Source of the DNA: Desulfobacterales bacterium
GTDB lineage: Bacteria; Desulfobacterota; Desulfobacteria; Desulfobacterales; JANQIE01
NCBI GenBank assembly: GCA_028282295.1
Contig: JANQIE010000282.1
Span: 1 to 37,404 of the forward strand
DNA length: 37,404 bases
Reading direction: 5' to 3'
In this document: positions 5,554-32,176 of the stretch, piece by piece
How the letters are laid out: each line of letters starts with the position of its first letter
Numbering within the stretch: position 1 is the stretch's first letter
Made by a program: the position numbers and the translations under genes
The notes under the pieces: model-generated
What the model was told of the DNA's origin: nothing
The model's input: only the letters and a program-made list of their open reading frames with translations
Database searches by the model: none

Positions 5554-6690
5554 ATGTGCCGTTTATTTGCCATTACCAGCAAAGAGCCCTTATCACCGAT
5601 GGTGGCCGTCCAGGCCCTGGACGTGATGCGCGAGGGGCACGACGGTTCCGGAGTAGGCCTGTTTTTGCGCGATTTGGGCGGACCCTTCGAAGACATCAAG
5701 GACGCACCGATCCTGTCGGGCATTTTCAGTGACAAGGGCCTCAAGCGTCTGGACACTTACATGATGGACATCGGATTCATGACCAAGTACAAATTGTCCA
5801 TCAAGGTCCCTAAAAAACCGCCGGCCGGTATTCCGCGCCGGGACGTCTACCTGGTGCGGGCCTATGAATACCCCGAAGACTGGGATGACATGCCGACGGC
5901 GGAAAAATACGAACAACTCGTCAGCATCCGCCTGGAGCTGCGCCGCATGGGACTGGAGAAGGATGACATGAAAGTCTTCTCCTTCTGGCCCGATGTGATC
6001 ATGATCAAGGAAATCGGCGATCCCTGGAAGGTGGCCCAGCACCTGAAGCTGGACCGCAAGGAGTTGCGCGCCCGCGTGATCATGGCCCAGGGCCGGCAAA
6101 ACACCAACTACGACATCAATTTATACGCCTGCCATCCGTTCTTCCTGCAGGGATACTCGACCATGACCAACGGCGAAAACACCGCCTTTGTGCCGATCAA
6201 GGAATACCTCATGGGCCGCAATGTCAAAGGCTATATCGGCTATCAGAGCGACTCGGAGGTCTTTACCCATATCCTGCACTACACCCAGCACGTGCTGGGA
6301 CTCGATATCGAAAACTACAAACACGTGATCACACCGCTGCAGGACGCCGACCTGGTCAAGCATCCCAACGGTGATTTTCTGCGTCATCTGAAAAACAGTT
6401 GCCGGCGCCTGATCATCGACGGACCCAATTGCGTCATCGGCTGTCTGCCCGATCACAGCCTGTTCATGGTCCAGGACCGCAAAAAGCTGCGGCCCGGCGT
6501 CGTGGGCGGCAAGCCCGGTATTTATGCGTTTTCATCTGAAATTTGCGGTCTGGACGCCGCGATTGCGGAACGCGACAAGTCCAAAGATTTTCAACCGATG
6601 CATCTGGATACGGTTATCGTGGGGCCGGATCGTCAGGAGGTTAAAGTATGCTGCCAAACCGAAGCATTACCCCATCAACTCTCTGCGTAA
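5554..6690 (+). CDS. Glutamate synthase glutamine-amidotransferase subunit (split, archaeal-type alpha-1)
   Basis: The 378-residue class II glutamine amidotransferase domain would hydrolyse glutamine and pass ammonia to the FMN subunit encoded next door. After removal of Met the protein starts with Cys2 (MCRLFAI), the N-terminal nucleophile of Ntn amidotransferases. GHDGSGVGLF and NGENTAF match the glutamine-site and oxyanion regions of this class. In classical GltB this domain is the N-terminus of a roughly 1500-residue polypeptide; here it is a separate gene, as in many archaea and anaerobes. The start is supported by AAGGAG eight bases upstream. Its 3' end overlaps the next gene by 43 bases, so the two are probably translationally coupled. 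Confidence 0.88.
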   Translation: MCRLFAITSKEPLSPMVAVQALDVMREGHDGSGVGLFLRDLGGPFEDIKDAPILSGIFSDKGLKRLDTYMMDIGFMTKYKLSIKVPKKPPAGIPRRDVYLVRAYEYPEDWDDMPTAEKYEQLVSIRLELRRMGLEKDDMKVFSFWPDVIMIKEIGDPWKVAQHLKLDRKELRARVIMAQGRQNTNYDINLYACHPFFLQGYSTMTNGENTAFVPIKEYLMGRNVKGYIGYQSDSEVFTHILHYTQHVLGLDIENYKHVITPLQDADLVKHPNGDFLRHLKNSCRRLIIDGPNCVIGCLPDHSLFMVQDRKKLRPGVVGGKPGIYAFSSEICGLDAAIAERDKSKDFQPMHLDTVIVGPDRQEVKVCCQTEALPHQLSA

Positions 6691-8282
6691 AAGACCTGCC
6701 CTGGCAGATCTTATGGAGCAAAGACAAATGCACCCTGTGCGGGCGCTGTACCGCCACCTGTCCGGTCAACGCCATCGAACTGGGGGTTTTTCGCAAACGA
6801 ACATTGCAAACCGCCCTTAACCTGACCGGGACGCCGGGCAATGTGCTTGCCGTTTATCACGGCATCCGCCAGAAAACCGATCCGGCCTATGCCTGCATCG
6901 GTTGCGGCATGTGCAATCTGGTCTGTCCCAACGACGCCATCATCCCGGCCCGTAGCGACGAGTTCGACAAATTGCGCTACCACATCGACCGGGGTGGCCA
7001 GCCGCGCCGCCGCGGCGGCCGTCGTAACGACGCCGGCGGCGTCCTCGACAAAATCAAGTTCATCCGCATCTCCATGCTCACCGACCCGGCCCTGGACGCC
7101 GGCCGGCATGAATTTGAAATGCGCACCCTTTTAGGCCGGGTGTTGCCGCCGGAAAAAAGCCTGCAATTCCAGCAGGAAAACGGCTGGATTCCCCCGGTGC
7201 GTGAAATTTATCCTTTAATCATCGGCGGCATGTCCTTCGGGGCCATGTCGCCCAATATGTGGGAAGGGCTGCAACTGGGCGTCACCTACCTGAACGAGGA
7301 ACTCGGCATCCCGGCCCGCATCTCCACCGGCGAGGGCGGCTGCCCGCCGCGCCTTTTGAAAAGCCGGTTTCTAAAATACGTTATCCTGCAGATCGCGTCG
7401 GGTTATTTTGGCTGGGACGAAATCATTCACGCCATTCCGCAAATGAAGGAAGACCCCTGCGCCATCGAGATCAAATACGGCCAGGGCGCCAAACCCGGCG
7501 ACGGCGGTTTGTTGATGTGGTACAAGGTCAACAAGCTGATCGCCGCCATTCGCGGGGTGCCCACCGGTGTCAACCTGCCGAGCCCGCCGACCCATCAAAC
7601 CAAATATTCCATCGAGGAATCGGTCGCCAAGATGATCCAGTCGATGTACATGGCCTGGGGTTTCAGGGTGCCGGTCTATCCGAAGATTTCGGCCACCTCG
7701 ACATCGCTGGCCGTGCTCAACAATCTGACCCGCAATCAATACGCGGCCGGGCTGGCCATCGATGGTGAAGACGGCGGCACCGGGGCGGCCTACAACGTCT
7801 CCATGAACCACATGGGGCACCCCATCGCCAGCAGTGTGCGCGATTGCTACCTGAACCTGGTCAAGGTCGGACAGCAAAACGAGATTCCGCTGTTTGCCGG
7901 TGGCGGGGTCGGCAAAACCGGCAATCTGGCCGCCAACGCCGCGGCCCTGATCATGCTCGGCGCCAGTGGCATTCAGATGGGCAAGTACATCATGCAGGCT
8001 GCCGCAGGCTGCCTGGGATCGGAAAACGATCGCTGCAATATCTGCAACATCGGTCTGTGTCCCAAGGGGATCACCTCCCAGGATCCGCGGTTGTACCGCC
8101 GGCTGGACGTGGACGAGGTTGCCCAGCGCGTGGTCGATGTCTATCTGAGTTTCGATACCGAACTGAAAAAAATCGTGGCCCCGCTGGGACGTTCGACGTC
8201 GCTGCCCATCGGTATGTCCGATGCTTTGGGCATCGACGACGCGGCCGCGGCCGAGCGGCTGCAAATCAAATATGTGGTTTGA
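6648..8282 (+). CDS. Glutamate synthase FMN/Fe-S catalytic subunit with N-terminal 2x[4Fe-4S] ferredoxin domain
   Basis: The 544-residue synthase subunit reduces 2-iminoglutarate, formed from 2-oxoglutarate and channelled ammonia, to glutamate on FMN. Residues about 25-100 carry two ferredoxin motifs (CTLCGRCTATCPVNAI; CIGCGMCNLVCPNDAI). From about 180 onward lies the TIM-barrel FMN domain, with IGGMSFGAMS, STGEGG, IKYGQGAKPGDGG and IDGEDGGTGAA. The cluster ligand region CNICNIGLCPKGIT matches the 3Fe-4S loop of glutamate synthase. The ATG follows AGGAGG by seven bases (GTCAGGAGGTTAAAGTATG), which fixes the start inside the upstream gene. The architecture is the archaeal or anaerobe type, with ferredoxin modules feeding the flavin. 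Confidence 0.92.
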   Translation: MLPNRSITPSTLCVKDLPWQILWSKDKCTLCGRCTATCPVNAIELGVFRKRTLQTALNLTGTPGNVLAVYHGIRQKTDPAYACIGCGMCNLVCPNDAIIPARSDEFDKLRYHIDRGGQPRRRGGRRNDAGGVLDKIKFIRISMLTDPALDAGRHEFEMRTLLGRVLPPEKSLQFQQENGWIPPVREIYPLIIGGMSFGAMSPNMWEGLQLGVTYLNEELGIPARISTGEGGCPPRLLKSRFLKYVILQIASGYFGWDEIIHAIPQMKEDPCAIEIKYGQGAKPGDGGLLMWYKVNKLIAAIRGVPTGVNLPSPPTHQTKYSIEESVAKMIQSMYMAWGFRVPVYPKISATSTSLAVLNNLTRNQYAAGLAIDGEDGGTGAAYNVSMNHMGHPIASSVRDCYLNLVKVGQQNEIPLFAGGGVGKTGNLAANAAALIMLGASGIQMGKYIMQAAAGCLGSENDRCNICNIGLCPKGITSQDPRLYRRLDVDEVAQRVVDVYLSFDTELKKIVAPLGRSTSLPIGMSDALGIDDAAAAERLQIKYVV

Positions 8283-8315
8283 TACGACGACTGAAAATTA
8301 ATCCTGGAGTTACAC

Positions 8316-10646
8316 ATGTCCGCTAAAAAATATCATCAACTATCCGGCCTTGAAGACGGCGTGCGCATCGAGTCACGCGTTCTGGAAGAGCGGCTGCAGG
8401 CCGCCGTGGTTCAGGGCCACCGTAATCTGCATATCAAAGCGTTCGGGCAGCACGGCATCGGCGGCCGTCTATGGCCGGCCGGCAATGAAGCCGTGCATAT
8501 TAAAATCGACGGCCATCCCGGTCAGCGGGTCGGCAGCATGGGCTTTGCCAACACCCGCATCGATATTTACGGCCCGGCCTCGGACGACGTAGGCTGGCTG
8601 AATGCCGGCGCGCATATCGTGATCCACGGCAATGCCGCCAACGGCTGCGGCAACGCCATGGCCCAGGGCAAGGTCTATGTGGGCGGCAATATCGGCGCCC
8701 GCGGCATGACCATGACCAAGGCCAATCCGCGCTTTGCTCCGCCTGAACTGTGGGTGCTCGGTTCGGCGGGCGATTATTTCGGCGAATTCATGGCCGGCGG
8801 GACCGCAGTGGTCTGCGGACATGAGCCCCAGAATGAAGACAACATCCTCGGCTACCGCCCCTTTGTCGGCATGGTGAGCGGACGGGTGTTTTTCCGCGGG
8901 CCCCACGACGGCTTCAGTCAACCGGATGCCCGCATGGCCCCCATCAGCGACGCCGACTGGCAATGGCTGCTCCAGAACATGAAGGTCTTTCTGGAAAATA
9001 TCCACCGGCCCGAGCTGCTGGAAAAATTCAGCGCCCGCGCCGAGTGGCAGCTTCTGGTGGCCCGCACCCCCCAGGAGAAACTGACCACCCGGCGCCGTTC
9101 CATGCAGGCGTTTCGCACCGACGTCTGGGATCGGGAACTTGGCCGGGGCGGGCTTATCGGCGATCTGGACGACAAGGACCGCGACCCGATTCCGATGGTT
9201 GTCAGCGGTGAGTTGCGGCGATTTGTACCGGTCTGGGAAAACCGCAAATATGCCGCGCCGTGTGAGGCCACCTGCCCCACCGGTATCCCGGTGCATGAAC
9301 GCTGGCGGCTGGTTCGTGAGGGCCGTGTTGATGAAGCCGTGGATCTGGCGCTGGCCTACACACCGTTTCCGGCCACGGTCTGCGGCTATCTGTGTCCCAA
9401 TCCATGCATGCAGTCGTGCACCCGTCAGATCATGGCCATGCCGCCGGTGGACATCACCCAACTGGGACAAGCCAGCATCGCCGCCACCCTGCCGGAACTC
9501 CCCTCGGTGACCGGCAAAAAGATCGGGGTGATCGGCGCCGGACCGGCCGGCATCTCCGTGGCCTGGCAATTGCGCCAGCAGGGGCATGAGGCGATCATCT
9601 ACGATATGGCCAAGACCCTGGGCGGCAAGATCAGTTCCGTGATCCCCAGCACCCGGATTCCCAAAAAGATCGTCGACCAGGAACTGGCACGGGCCGCGAA
9701 AGTGATCCCCCATGTGAATCTGCAACAGAACCTGACCCGGGAAGATGTGGCCCGCCTGCGTGAAGACCACGATTATCTGGTCCTGGCCACCGGCGCCCAG
9801 AAACCGCGCATCATCCCGGTTCCCGGCAAAGAGCGGATGATTCCGGCCAATGACTTTCTGGCCGCCGCCAAAGAGAATCAAGCGAAACCGGGCAAACGGG
9901 TGGTGGTTATCGGCGCCGGCAACGTGGGCTGCGACGCGGCCACGGAAGCAGCGCGGCTGGGGGCGGACGATCTGTTGCTGATCGATGTGCAGGAACCGTT
10001 GTCTTTTGGCAAAGAGCGCGAGGAGGCTGAAAAAGCCGGCGCCAAATTCCGCTATCCCTGTTTTACCGAGAAGGTCACCGCCGAGGGCGTGGTGCTCAAC
10101 ACCGGCGAACTGCTGCCGGCCGACACCGTGATCATTTCCATCGGCGATGCCCCGGACCTCGACTTTTTACCCGACGGCATCGACACGGATCGCGGCTATG
10201 TAAAAGTGAACGATCATTTTCAAACCAGCGACGCCAAAATTTTCGCCATCGGCGATCTCGTCAAACCCGGCCTGCTCACCGACGCCATCGGCGCCGGCCG
10301 CAAAGCCGCCGCCGCCATCGGTGAACTGGCTGCCGGCCGCACCCCGGCCGGCCTGCAGCGCGAGATGATCGACAGACAGCGCGTTTCGCTGGAATATTTT
10401 GATCCGCGCATCGAGCAATTTGACGATGTCGATCACTGCGGCAGCCAGTGTTCTTCCTGCGGCGCCTGCCGGGATTGCGGCGTGTGCATCGCCGCCTGCC
10501 CCCAAACCGCCATCAGCAAGACTGAAAAGGGCGGCAGCGAGTACGAATACGTGGTCGATCCCGACAAGTGCATCGGCTGTGGCTTCTGTGCCGGGGCCTG
10601 TCCTTGCGGGGTTTGGAATTTGGTGGAGAATGAGCCGTTAGTTTAG
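8316..10646 (+). CDS. Fused glutamate synthase GXGXG (alpha-3) domain, GltD-like NAD(P)H oxidoreductase and C-terminal ferredoxin
   Basis: The 776-residue fusion has three parts. Residues 1 to about 245 form the GXGXG beta-helix of glutamate synthase (repeats around YGPASDDVGWLNAG, VYVGGNIGARG). Residues about 310-700 match GltD: an N-terminal Fe-S segment (CEATCPTGIPVHERW, CGYLCPNPCMQSC), an FAD-binding IGVIGAGPAGIS near 405, a second Rossmann motif VVVIGAGNVGCD near 530, and FAIGDLVKPGL at the FAD end. The C-terminus carries two ferredoxin clusters (CSSCGACRDCGVCIAACP; CIGCGFCAGACP). It would take electrons from NAD(P)H or ferredoxin and deliver them to the FMN subunit. CTGGAG lies upstream of the ATG, 33 bases after the previous stop, so it belongs to the same operon. 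Which cofactor is used cannot be read from the sequence. Confidence 0.9.
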   Translation: MSAKKYHQLSGLEDGVRIESRVLEERLQAAVVQGHRNLHIKAFGQHGIGGRLWPAGNEAVHIKIDGHPGQRVGSMGFANTRIDIYGPASDDVGWLNAGAHIVIHGNAANGCGNAMAQGKVYVGGNIGARGMTMTKANPRFAPPELWVLGSAGDYFGEFMAGGTAVVCGHEPQNEDNILGYRPFVGMVSGRVFFRGPHDGFSQPDARMAPISDADWQWLLQNMKVFLENIHRPELLEKFSARAEWQLLVARTPQEKLTTRRRSMQAFRTDVWDRELGRGGLIGDLDDKDRDPIPMVVSGELRRFVPVWENRKYAAPCEATCPTGIPVHERWRLVREGRVDEAVDLALAYTPFPATVCGYLCPNPCMQSCTRQIMAMPPVDITQLGQASIAATLPELPSVTGKKIGVIGAGPAGISVAWQLRQQGHEAIIYDMAKTLGGKISSVIPSTRIPKKIVDQELARAAKVIPHVNLQQNLTREDVARLREDHDYLVLATGAQKPRIIPVPGKERMIPANDFLAAAKENQAKPGKRVVVIGAGNVGCDAATEAARLGADDLLLIDVQEPLSFGKEREEAEKAGAKFRYPCFTEKVTAEGVVLNTGELLPADTVIISIGDAPDLDFLPDGIDTDRGYVKVNDHFQTSDAKIFAIGDLVKPGLLTDAIGAGRKAAAAIGELAAGRTPAGLQREMIDRQRVSLEYFDPRIEQFDDVDHCGSQCSSCGACRDCGVCIAACPQTAISKTEKGGSEYEYVVDPDKCIGCGFCAGACPCGVWNLVENEPLV

Positions 10647-18678: not shown

Positions 18679-21171
18679 ATGATACATGTGGCTTTGGGGC
18701 AAGTTGAAGGAATCGACACCGATCAGACCATTTCGCGTGTCGTCGCGCAGTGCCGGCGCCAGATGGCCGGTCGACCGGTGGATGCGGGCCTTGTGTTCAT
18801 CAGCGCCGGTTTTGATGCGGCCCTGGTTGTAAAAGTCGTCAACGACGCTTTTCCCGGTATCGAGTTGGTGGGCTGCACCACCTCCGGCGAGTTTTCGTCC
18901 CAACTGGGTTTCAGCGATGATTCGATCTGCCTGGTGACGCTGGCTTCGGAGCAAGTTGAATTCAAGGCCGGACTCGGCTTGACCATGTCGGTCAATCCCG
19001 AAGCCGCGGCCGTCCAGGCGGTGGCCGCCGCCGGTCGTGAACTAAACGGCATTGCCCGTGTTTGTATTGCGTTGCCCGACGGCGCCGGTTCCAATTTCAA
19101 CCGCCTGATGGCGGCCTTTAGCAGTGAGCTCGGTTTGGAGTGCCCGGTCTTCGGAGGGTGTTCCAGCACTCAGGAAGCGCCCTTTGATCACCCGATCCGT
19201 CAGATCTACAAAACCACGCTGGTCAGTGATGCCGTACCGATTTTGTTGCTCGCCGGTCCGGTCGAGCACCGTTTCGCGGTGGCCAATAGCTGGCGGCCGG
19301 TGGGGCGGCGGGCCAAGGTTACCGATGTCGACGGCCCGATTGTGCGGCGCATTGGCGAGCGCAGCGCCATCGATTTTTATCGTCACTATCTGGGGGATCA
19401 TTCCCTGCCGGCCTTTGACTTTCCCCTGGCGGTCTACGAAAGCGGGGCCGACCGGTTTTACATGCGCGGTCTGTCCCGCTATGATCTGGCCGCCCAGAGT
19501 ATTCATTTTGCCGAAGCCATCCCGGTGGGCGCGACAGTGCAGTTAACCGAAGCGGTGCGTACCACGTTGCTGAACGACACGCGCAACTGCATGTCGGTTT
19601 TCAGTTCCGCCGTCAACTGTATAAATCCGGCGCTGGCGCTTTCGTTTTCATGCTCTTTGCGCAAGGAGGCACTAGGGACCCGCGCCATCGACGAATTGAA
19701 TATCATCACGCAGAACCTGCCGCGCGGTCTGCCGGTTTGCGGTTTTTTCGGTTATGGCGAAATCACGCCCCTGAATGACGGCGAGCCGAGTTTCTACCAC
19801 AATGCCACCCTGGCCACCGTCGTGCTCGGTACATCGAACCGGCGCGGCAACAGCGCCGCGATTACACTGTCAGGCGTCGACCTGGAACCGCAGGCACTTG
19901 TGCCGACGGGGGTCGAAAATCGAATTTTACAGCATAAGTTGGCGCGCTCCACCCAGTATCGGCGGCGCCTGGAGAACAGCCGGGCCTTTGCCAGCACCAT
20001 GTACCGGCGGATCGCCAGGGAGATCGATACAGCGCGGCGTGAAATTGCCGAAAAAGAAGCCCTCTTGCGCAAGAGTGAGGAGAAATACCGGCGCATTGTG
20101 GAAACCACCAGTGAAGGGTTTCTGCTGATGGATGAAAACCTGATGATCCACGATGTCAATGAAGCCTACTGCCGCATGGTCGGCTACACCAAGGAAGAAC
20201 TGCTCGGCAAGGCGGTGACGGACCTGGCCGAACCGGCTTACCGCCGGTTTCTGATCACCCATCGCGAAGAACTGCTGGCCAAAGAATCGCGCAAGACCGA
20301 GGGCCGGCTCATCGCCCGTGACGGGCACACGATTCCCATCCTGGTGCACGGCAATACTTTGCGTGACAGCCAGGGAGAGACTATCGGGCATATGACGTTT
20401 GTAACCGATATGACCGAGCCCAAGAAGGCCCTGCTGCTGGCCGCTGAAATCCAAAAAAATTTACTGCCGCACACCAAGCCCCAAATACCGGGCATCGACG
20501 TGGCCGGTCGCAGTATTTCCTGCCAGGAAGTCGGCGGCGACTACTACGATTTCCTATGGGGCCCGACCTACACCCAAAACCCGCTTAGCGTGGTGGTCGG
20601 CGATATTACCGGGCACGGCGTGGATGCGGCGTTGCTGATGACCTCGGCCCGGGCGTTTTTACGCATGCGGGCCGCGCAATCCGGCCCGATTGCCGATATC
20701 GTCACCGCCATGAACCGGCATCTTACGATGGATGTTTTGGATACCGGACGCTTTATGACGTTGTTTTATCTGACCATCGATCCGGCGCAAATGCAGTTGC
20801 GCTGGGTGCGCGCGGGCCACGATCCGGCGTGGGTGTACGATCCCGAAACGCAGCAATTTGATTTGCTCGGGGGCAGCGGGGTGGCATTGGGCCTGGATGA
20901 AAACGTTCGCTATACCGCCTACCAGAAAACAGGGGGGGCGCCGGGCCGGATCATCGTGCTCGGAACCGACGGGATTTGGGAAGCATTCAGTCCGCGGGGA
21001 GAGATGTTCGGTAAAAACCGGCTGGAGGAAGTGATTCGCGCCAACGCGCACCTGGACGCCCAGGCCATCCTCGATGCCGTTTATGCGAAAGTGGATGAGT
21101 TTACCGAGGGTACACCACCGGCGGATGATATTACGTTGGTAGTGATCAAATTGGCGGACACAAACGCTTAG
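18679..21171 (+). CDS. FIST sensor / PAS / SpoIIE-type PP2C phosphatase
   Basis: The 830-residue signalling protein has three parts. Residues 1 to about 400 form FIST_N and FIST_C domains (ELVGCTTSGEFSSQLGFSDD near 60; VCGFFGYGEITPLNDGEPSF near 355), which are thought to bind small ligands such as amino acids. Residues about 470-580 are a PAS domain (YRRIVETTSEGFLLMDENLM). From about 585 lies a PP2C/SpoIIE phosphatase (IQKNLLP, QEVGGDYYDF, VVGDITGHGVDAALLM, LGTDGIWEAFSP, ADDITLVVIK) with the metal-binding aspartates present. The ATG follows GGAGG. No transmembrane segment is visible, so it is likely cytosolic. By analogy to RsbU-like proteins it may dephosphorylate an anti-sigma antagonist, but none is encoded here. 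Its stop codon TAG is the first triplet of repeat R2b. Confidence 0.92.
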   Translation: MIHVALGQVEGIDTDQTISRVVAQCRRQMAGRPVDAGLVFISAGFDAALVVKVVNDAFPGIELVGCTTSGEFSSQLGFSDDSICLVTLASEQVEFKAGLGLTMSVNPEAAAVQAVAAAGRELNGIARVCIALPDGAGSNFNRLMAAFSSELGLECPVFGGCSSTQEAPFDHPIRQIYKTTLVSDAVPILLLAGPVEHRFAVANSWRPVGRRAKVTDVDGPIVRRIGERSAIDFYRHYLGDHSLPAFDFPLAVYESGADRFYMRGLSRYDLAAQSIHFAEAIPVGATVQLTEAVRTTLLNDTRNCMSVFSSAVNCINPALALSFSCSLRKEALGTRAIDELNIITQNLPRGLPVCGFFGYGEITPLNDGEPSFYHNATLATVVLGTSNRRGNSAAITLSGVDLEPQALVPTGVENRILQHKLARSTQYRRRLENSRAFASTMYRRIAREIDTARREIAEKEALLRKSEEKYRRIVETTSEGFLLMDENLMIHDVNEAYCRMVGYTKEELLGKAVTDLAEPAYRRFLITHREELLAKESRKTEGRLIARDGHTIPILVHGNTLRDSQGETIGHMTFVTDMTEPKKALLLAAEIQKNLLPHTKPQIPGIDVAGRSISCQEVGGDYYDFLWGPTYTQNPLSVVVGDITGHGVDAALLMTSARAFLRMRAAQSGPIADIVTAMNRHLTMDVLDTGRFMTLFYLTIDPAQMQLRWVRAGHDPAWVYDPETQQFDLLGGSGVALGLDENVRYTAYQKTGGAPGRIIVLGTDGIWEAFSPRGEMFGKNRLEEVIRANAHLDAQAILDAVYAKVDEFTEGTPPADDITLVVIKLADTNA

Positions 21172-21206
21172 GGCTCGCGCAAAAACAATTTCACATTTTA
21201 TGCGCC
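21168..21206 (+). repeat. R2b: left half of the short palindromic repeat
   Basis: CTTAGGGCTCGCGCAAAAAC then AATTTCACATTTTATGCGCC matches the left arm and centre of R2d (32131-32176). The right arm is replaced by a different hairpin. The TAG inside CTTAGGG is the stop codon of the upstream FIST-phosphatase gene. Confidence 0.7.
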
Positions 21207-31346: not shown

Positions 31347-31382
31347 AAAAAAATGTGAAATTATTTTTGCGCGAGCCCTTAG
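31347..31382 (+). repeat. R2c: right half of the short palindromic repeat
   Basis: AAAAAAATGTGAAATTATTT followed by TTGCGCGAGCCCTTAG matches the centre and right arm of R2d. It lies between the anti-sigma gene and the DUF3179 gene. Confidence 0.7.
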
Positions 31383-31493
31383 TGTGTTGTTCGTAAGGAA
31401 TACGACCAGCAGCCCGACCACTGAGCAACGGGTTCGTTAAAGCTGGTTTGATGCAGAATAACAGCCGACAGTCTTCAAATGGGAGGATTCGTT

Positions 31494-32126
31494 ATGATGT
31501 CTGAATTTAAACGGTGCATTGCCGTCATGCTATTGCTTTTGTTACCGGCTTGCGTGGCGTTCGGGCGCGTTTTGACGCTGAACGACAAAACCTACATTAT
31601 AGATCTGCATGGTGAGCGCTGGGATGTCACCCAGGCCATGACTCTGGGCTTCAAGCCGGCTCGTTTTCAGCACGGCATCGGCCGCCATGCCTTTACACCA
31701 TTGGATGATTCGTCCATGCAGTCCGGTGACCGGGGCGTAAGTGGGCGAACACGCGTCATCGGTATTGCCAGCGGCCGGGACGCCCGCGCCTACTCTGTAC
31801 CGAAGTTGTGGCGACACGAGATCGCGAATTCGAAAATAGGTGACGATCCGATTGCCGCCGGCTACTGACCGTTGGTCGATTTAGCGGCTGTGTACAGCCG
31901 CCAGATAGATGGGCGTGTGTTGACCATTGCACCGTCCGGGTGGACATACGACAACACGTTTGTGCTGTACGACCGGGAAACCGAAACGTTATGGTATCCG
32001 GATGATAAAGGGCTCAAGGGGATTCAGGGGAAGTACTTCGGTCGTGTGCTGCCTAAGCTGGACGCCGAGGATACCAATTGGGGTGAGTGGCGCCGGCGTC
32101 ACCCGGATTCCAGGATCTTGAAGTAG
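31494..32126 (+). CDS. DUF3179 protein with in-frame TGA: candidate selenoprotein (Sec125)
   Basis: The frame from ATG 31494 to TAG 32126 is open except for one TGA at 31866-31868 (codon 125). Both sides match DUF3179: TRVIGIASGRDARAYSVPKL, then WRHEIANSKIGDDPIAAGY, then the TGA, then PLVDLAAVYSRQIDGRVLTI, SGWTYDNTFVLYDRETETLW and the end WRRRHPDSRIL. The family has a conserved YCPLC motif; the TGA falls exactly on its first Cys, and the second Cys is Val. A perfect hairpin lies 15 bases after the TGA. The N-terminus is a signal peptide with a possible lipobox (LLPAC), so the protein is exported. The start has GGAGG seven bases upstream. The alternative is a nonsense-mutated pseudogene, but no frameshift or decay is visible. 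Translated with Sec it would be 210 residues. Confidence 0.82.
31884..31901 (+). promoter_or_regulatory. SECIS-like hairpin after the in-frame TGA
   Basis: GCGGCTG (31884-31890), loop TGTA, CAGCCGC (31895-31901): a perfect 7-bp stem. The apical loop starts 23 bases after the TGA and has a G at position two, in the range and style reported for bacterial SECIS elements. It lies inside the coding frame, as bacterial SECIS elements do. A bulged U in the stem is not seen. Confidence 0.6.
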
Positions 32127-32130
32127 TTTT

Positions 32131-32176
32131 TAAGGGCTCGCGCTAAAATGTGAAATTGTTTTTGCGCGAGCCCTAA
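32131..32176. repeat. R2d: full short palindromic repeat
   Basis: TTAAGGGCTCGCGCTAAAAT then GTGAAATTGT then TTTTGCGCGAGCCCTAAG. The arms AGGGCTCGCGC/GCGCGAGCCCT are perfect 11-bp complements. It lies between the convergent DUF3179 and YdcF-like genes and may act as a terminator. Its right-hand CTAAG contains the TAG stop (complement) of the YdcF-like gene at 32173-32175. Confidence 0.8.

What the first reader, a model, noticed from the sequence alone, without database searches (positions are those of the whole stretch)
31494..32126. DUF3179 protein with TGA at its conserved cysteine: probable selenoprotein
One in-frame TGA (31866) interrupts an otherwise family-like DUF3179 frame with the same phase on both sides. 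It replaces the first Cys of the family's YCPLC motif. Nothing else in the frame shows decay: the start, ribosome site, signal peptide and C-terminus are intact. Cys-to-Sec replacement is the classic signature of selenoproteins, and sulfate-reducer-like deltaproteobacteria are known to be selenoprotein-rich. An automatic annotation would split this into two hypothetical genes. If Sec is inserted, an exported single-Sec redox protein of unknown function results.
Basis: partly seen in the sequence, partly recalled or inferred. Interest (0 to 1): 0.9.

Follow-up and report, generated by a model that had tools for sequence, protein, structure and literature searches.

The report
Cysteine-free short DUF3179 selenoprotein
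A gene that looks split in two by a stop codon is really one intact gene for an exported protein carrying the rare amino acid selenocysteine; the protein family was already known to include selenoproteins, but this short branch, in which selenocysteine is the only redox-active residue and no cysteine version was found, differs from the described form.

Summary
TGA at 31866-31868 interrupts a single DUF3179 frame (31494-32126) at the family's Cys column, and the selenoprotein reading is strongly supported. All 32 distinct short-form relatives in the tree, from many families of the same order, other lineages of the phylum and two Nitrospirota-labelled MAGs, carry TGA at exactly this codon; no Cys version was seen. 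Immediately downstream a stem-loop (31884-31901) is conserved at synonymous positions, as a bacterial SECIS element should be. The genome has selA, selB, selD and a tRNA-Sec with anticodon UCA. Pseudogene and sequencing error are excluded. The idea is not new: DUF3179 is already listed as a selenoprotein family (motif UxxC/T, attributed to Zhang & Gladyshev 2007), and RefSeq uses the name 'DUF3179 domain-containing (seleno)protein'. What appears new is the subfamily: about 210 aa, exported, motif UPLV/UPLA, no cysteine in the mature protein, and a well-supported clade that is all Sec (32 of 32). Function is unproven. My best inference is a periplasmic one-selenol redox enzyme resolved by an external thiol, with invariant His108 assisting. 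No usable fold was obtained and neighbouring genes are not conserved.

The parts
31494..32126 (+). DUF3179 short-form selenoprotein gene, 210 residues with Sec at position 125, stop TAG 32124-32126
   Evidence: translation with TGA read through; PF11376 E 5e-31; intact homologues with the same TGA
31481..31487 (+). Shine-Dalgarno-like GGGAGGA before ATG 31494
   Evidence: sequence
31494..31562 (+). export signal (MMSEFKRCIAVMLLLLLPACVAF); lipoprotein-type or signal peptidase I-type not settled
   Evidence: sequence; full-length relatives have a hydrophobic N-terminus, some with a clearer lipobox, e.g. L002 VGC and L003 IGC; inferred by eye, no signal-peptide program was available
31725..32123 (+). 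region matching DUF3179 (residues 78-210; profile positions 18-148 of 292)
31815..31817 (+). His108 codon, the residue invariant in short and long DUF3179 forms together with the Cys/Sec column
   Evidence: His 32/32 short and 46/46 long
31866..31868 (+). in-frame TGA, Sec125 codon
   Evidence: TGA in all 32 short-form rows of the tree
31884..31901 (+). SECIS-like stem-loop GCGGCUG-UGUA-CAGCCGC, 15 nt after the TGA
   Evidence: fold of the region -25.1 kcal/mol, z -2.4; synonymous-site conservation; pair counts

Best explanation
The gene encodes an intact exported selenoprotein of the DUF3179 family. During translation the UGA at 31866 is decoded as selenocysteine by SelB and tRNA-Sec, directed by the stem-loop 15 nt downstream. 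The mature protein sits in the periplasm, possibly lipid-anchored, and has one Sec and no Cys. The most likely chemistry is a one-selenol redox reaction: the Sec selenolate, helped by invariant His108, attacks a peroxide- or disulfide-type substrate and is regenerated by an external thiol or a partner protein, because no resolving Cys exists in the chain. Shown here computationally: recoded frame, SECIS-like element, Sec machinery, Sec-only clade. Inferred: export, His assistance and redox chemistry. The confidence given is for the selenoprotein claim; for the one-selenol redox chemistry it is about 0.5.
For: One TGA in an otherwise intact DUF3179 frame. Five relatives from named MAGs all have TGA at this codon. 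In relatives of the same order every match covering the site has a TGA there. 32 distinct short forms make one clade (support 100/99), Sec in all; Cys forms occur only among long forms. Synonymous codon identity is 0.74 at codons +5 to +11 after the TGA against 0.39 at 45 other conserved codons; V+8 is GTG in all 32. The core stem pairs in 26-32 of 32 sequences per pair, and the long form puts a different stem (CGGGAGU...ACUCCCG) at the same place. tRNA-Sec 72 bits, anticodon tca; SelB 359 bits; SelA 602 bits; SelD 365 bits, itself with one in-frame TGA. No Cys other than the Sec site in the mature region of 32/32 short forms; His108 and the Cys/Sec column invariant, and N112, P126, G149, D160 largely conserved, across both forms.
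Against: No protein-level proof. Covariation inside the short-form stem is thin: one pair with changes on both sides, and the region is also constrained by the protein sequence. tRNA-Sec was found in only 19 of the 27 short-form genomes of the order against 297 of 389 overall, so no enrichment was seen. One of those without a hit, G185, does have a SelB with 62% identity, which suggests missed tRNA genes. The enzymatic step is inference; the fold prediction failed (mean pLDDT 51) and gene neighbourhood gives no clear partner.
Confidence: 0.93

Rival explanations
1. Pseudogene, or a sequencing or assembly error: the TGA is a recent nonsense change and the gene is broken.
For: A few partial DUF3179 matches in the order look like fragments or contig-edge pieces.
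Against: The same TGA is found in 32 distinct relatives from separate genomes, with the part after the TGA as conserved as the part before it.
Confidence: 0.01
2. UGA is a real stop and the two halves are separate functional polypeptides.
For: Mechanical ORF calling splits the gene at the TGA.
Against: The family domain spans the TGA; long-form homologues read straight through with Cys at this column; synonymous sites right after the TGA are conserved.
Confidence: 0.02
3. UGA is read by another route, such as a UGA suppressor tRNA that inserts Cys or Trp, rather than Sec.
For: None specific; some relatives lack a detected tRNA-Sec.
Against: The complete Sec machinery is in the genome; the SECIS-like element is conserved; the conserved in-frame UGA sits at the Cys column of the family.
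Confidence: 0.03
4. Sec is present but acts as a metal ligand (with His108) rather than as a redox nucleophile.
For: The Sec/Cys and His108 columns are, with Gly149, the residues that never vary across short and long forms, and no second thiol exists in the short form. One relative, G136, lies near mer-like genes.
Against: No metal-binding motif was recognised and no structure is available; the mer-like neighbourhood is a single case and not statistically tested.
Confidence: 0.2

Closest known systems
DUF3179 selenoprotein family (PF11376; UxxC/T in PMC9312934 and PMC13188914, attributed there to Zhang & Gladyshev 2007)
   Same: Same Pfam domain and Sec at the same conserved Cys column; UGA-encoded Sec in a deltaproteobacterial lineage.
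   Different: Short form of about 210 aa matching profile positions 18-148 of 292; motif UxxV/A instead of UxxC/T; no Cys in the mature protein; a separate clade with no Cys version found.
Long-form Sec DUF3179 proteins (UPLT, UPLA, UPLS) in the same order and phylum
   Same: Homologous core with His, Cys/Sec, Pro, Gly and Asp conserved; Sec at the same place with a stem-loop just after it.
   Different: About 300 aa or more with a second half that the short form lacks; in the tree they lie with the Cys forms, outside the short-form clade.
Cys-type DUF3179 proteins (CPLC, CPLT; e.g. Thiothrix and members of the same phylum)
   Same: Same domain; Cys at the Sec column.
   Different: Cys instead of Sec, often with a second Cys (CxxC).

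Membership tests
DUF3179 (PF11376) | Pfam score above the gathering cut-off | tested here: met
   108.6 bits against a cut-off of 27
DUF3179 (PF11376) | match along the whole domain profile | tested here: not met
   only profile positions 18-148 of 292 are matched; the second half is absent in the short-form clade. Half-length members exist, so this lowers 'full-length DUF3179', not family membership
DUF3179 selenoproteins as described (UxxC/T) | Sec (in-frame TGA) at the conserved Cys column | tested here: met
DUF3179 selenoproteins as described (UxxC/T) | Cys or Thr three residues after Sec | tested here: not met
   Val in 28 and Ala in 4 of 32 short forms; motif of the reviews
Bacterial selenoprotein | SECIS stem-loop shortly after the UGA | tested here: met
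   stem-loop 15 nt after the UGA, fold z -2.4, synonymous-site conservation; covariation alone inconclusive
Bacterial selenoprotein | selA, selB, selD and tRNA-Sec in the genome | tested here: met
Bacterial selenoprotein | homologues with Cys in place of Sec | tested here: met
   Cys at this column in long forms; none within the short-form clade
Bacterial selenoprotein | selenium in the purified protein | not testable with these tools
   needs 75Se labelling or mass spectrometry
Thioredoxin-like or other CxxC redox proteins | two redox residues in a CxxC-type motif | tested here: not met
   single Sec and no Cys in the mature protein of 32/32

The most novel reading that the evidence does not exclude
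A lineage of exported proteins that is obligately selenocysteine-dependent and otherwise cysteine-free, in which a single selenol with an invariant His performs chemistry that Cys cannot replace, possibly metal-ligand or one-selenol peroxide chemistry rather than a dithiol exchange.
Probability: 0.3. Interest if true: 0.6.

Novelty: new variant of a known kind. Interest (0 to 1): 0.42.

Why it matters
Standard gene calling cuts this gene in half, so the subfamily is likely to be missed or described as two fragments. A clade with Sec in 32 of 32 members, no Cys version and no other thiol is a clean natural test of why Sec is kept instead of Cys, and it gives a small target for finding the still unknown function of DUF3179.

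Tried and rejected
AlphaFold2 with six sequences gave mean pLDDT 51 and pTM 0.38, so no fold search was made. No related solved structure was found by sequence. Viral contigs gave no relatives. Gene neighbourhood of 44 stretches showed no conserved operon: synteny only among close relatives, ECF-sigma-like genes near 7 loci and FAD-dependent disulfide oxidoreductases near 6, of mixed subtypes; treated as weak leads only. NCBIfam has no model that hits the protein meaningfully. tRNA-Sec co-occurrence was tested and was not enriched (19 of 27 against 297 of 389); reading 1.2 Mb of one negative genome found SelB, so the negatives are probably incomplete detection. The original 2007 paper is not held, so whether it already contained short forms could not be checked.

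Full report
Observation. The frame 31494-32126 on the + strand is open except for a single TGA at 31866-31868 and ends with TAG. Read with TGA as Sec it gives 210 residues, with a hydrophobic N-terminal export signal and residues 78-210 matching DUF3179 (PF11376) at 108.6 bits against a cut-off of 27. The TGA is in the motif GY[U]PLV, at the column that holds Cys in Cys-type DUF3179 proteins (YCPLC and similar). One addition: the second Cys of YCPLC is also missing here (Val), so this is not a simple exchange of one Cys of a CxxC pair.

Is the TGA conserved? Five relatives from named MAGs (58-70% identity in the aligned set) all have TGA at this codon. In whole-genome searches of the order, every match that covers the site has a TGA, and matches without a stop are fragments that do not cover it. 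Combining loci from the order and phylum, 32 distinct short forms have TGA and none has Cys. The set spans many families of the order, three further families of the phylum and two MAGs labelled Nitrospirota (the label of such MAG contigs may be wrong). A nonsense mutation or sequencing error cannot explain this.

Family picture. A maximum-likelihood tree of 82 rows puts the 32 short forms in one clade (support 100/99, branch 1.87), all Sec. Long forms are a mixture of Sec (UPLT, UPLA, UPLS, UPLC, and a divergent UVVC/UAEC group) and Cys (CPLC, CPLT, CPIT, CPTT); the fewest changes of the label on the tree is three. Four rows of that tree are spurious alignments (motifs such as EADS) and were left out of later counts. 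The tree's root is arbitrary, so the direction of Cys/Sec change is not settled.

SECIS element. The 66 nt around and after the TGA fold at -25.1 kcal/mol, z -2.4 against shuffles, with a core hairpin GCGGCUG-UGUA-CAGCCGC starting 15 nt after the TGA (31884-31901). Across 32 sequences the codons of this hairpin are frozen at synonymous positions: mean probability that two synonymous codons are identical is 0.74 for codons +5 to +11 and 0.39 for 45 other conserved codons; Val+8 is GTG in all, while other conserved Val codons score 0.25-0.32. Core pairs are standard in 26 to 32 of 32 sequences. Changes on both sides occur at the outermost pair only (G-C, A-U, U-A), so covariation within the clade is weak, and the protein also constrains this region. 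The long forms have a different stem at about the same distance (CGGGAGU...ACUCCCG), which supports a conserved structure rather than only a conserved sequence.

Machinery. The genome (100% complete by the tool's estimate, 326 contigs) has tRNA-Sec at C160 (72 bits, above cut-off; ARAGORN anticodon tca), SelB at C226, SelA at C151 and SelD at C192, which itself contains one in-frame TGA. Co-occurrence across the order was tested and gave no enrichment: 19 of 27 genomes with the short form have a detected tRNA-Sec against 297 of 389 overall (counted by eye from the lists); a closer search of the other eight found no clear tRNA-Sec, its best matches being Ser, Leu and Trp tRNAs. For one of these, a single-contig genome (G185), 1.2 Mb were read and SelB was found at 62% identity over 635 residues. 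The negatives are therefore best explained by limited detection, but this was shown for one genome only.

Anatomy and mechanism. In the mature region of all 32 short forms there is no Cys apart from the Sec site. The Sec/Cys column, His108 and Gly149 do not vary in 32 short and 46 long forms; Asn112, Pro126, Asp160 and Trp167 are nearly as constant. From this I infer a one-selenol active site with His assistance, resolved by an outside thiol or partner. A role of Sec as metal ligand is the main rival on chemistry. Neither is shown. Fold prediction failed for lack of alignment depth, no solved relative was found, and the gene has no conserved neighbours: in the window it follows a TauE-like exporter gene and an ECF sigma factor gene and precedes a DUF218 gene on the other strand. 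A Thiothrix plasmid has a Cys-type member next to thioredoxin-domain, GDCCVxC '(seleno)protein' and cytochrome c peroxidase genes, a redox context but a single case.

What is known. DUF3179 appears as a selenoprotein family with motif UxxC/T in two reviews, PMC9312934 and PMC13188914; the first gives its source as Zhang & Gladyshev 2007 on the Olavius symbiont. The 2007 paper could not be read. RefSeq already uses 'DUF3179 domain-containing (seleno)protein'. The short form fails the published motif (Val or Ala instead of Cys or Thr) and lacks the second half of the domain, so I file it as a new variant of a known kind, with the caveat that the 2007 set may have contained short forms.

Verdict. 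Selenoprotein: about 0.93. Novelty: new variant. Interest: moderate, for the cysteine-free, Sec-only clade.

Noticed in passing
window 31352-31379, 32147-32174 and 21170-21197: Copies of a repeat (AATGTGAAATTNTTTTTGCGCGAGCCCT) flank the gene; the genome holds 194 copies with up to 3 mismatches and none of the reversed control. Many copies occur as inverted pairs 153 bases apart, which looks like the ends of a small non-autonomous mobile element of about 180 bp.
   Followed up: partly
L131 (G136), 6299-8719, downstream of its short-form gene: Genes that look by eye like a MerR-type regulator, a MerT-like membrane protein and a MerA-like reductase follow a small secreted protein next to the DUF3179 gene; a possible link to metal or mercury handling, single case.
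   Followed up: no
L108, L114, L115, L116 and L117 (long, divergent DUF3179 relatives): A divergent group with motif F-U-x-x-C-N-[ST]-G-V (UVVC, UAEC, UPSC) also has TGA at the Cys column; the four members in the tree form their own clade.
   Followed up: partly
genomes G185, G150, G002, G163, G254, G271, G291 and G388: Genomes with the Sec-type gene but no clear tRNA-Sec hit; G185 has SelB, the others were not checked.
   Followed up: partly
L161, 4404-5846 (Halobaculum plasmid): RefSeq names this haloarchaeal gene a '(seleno)protein' although it reads Cys (CTLC) at the site.
   Followed up: no
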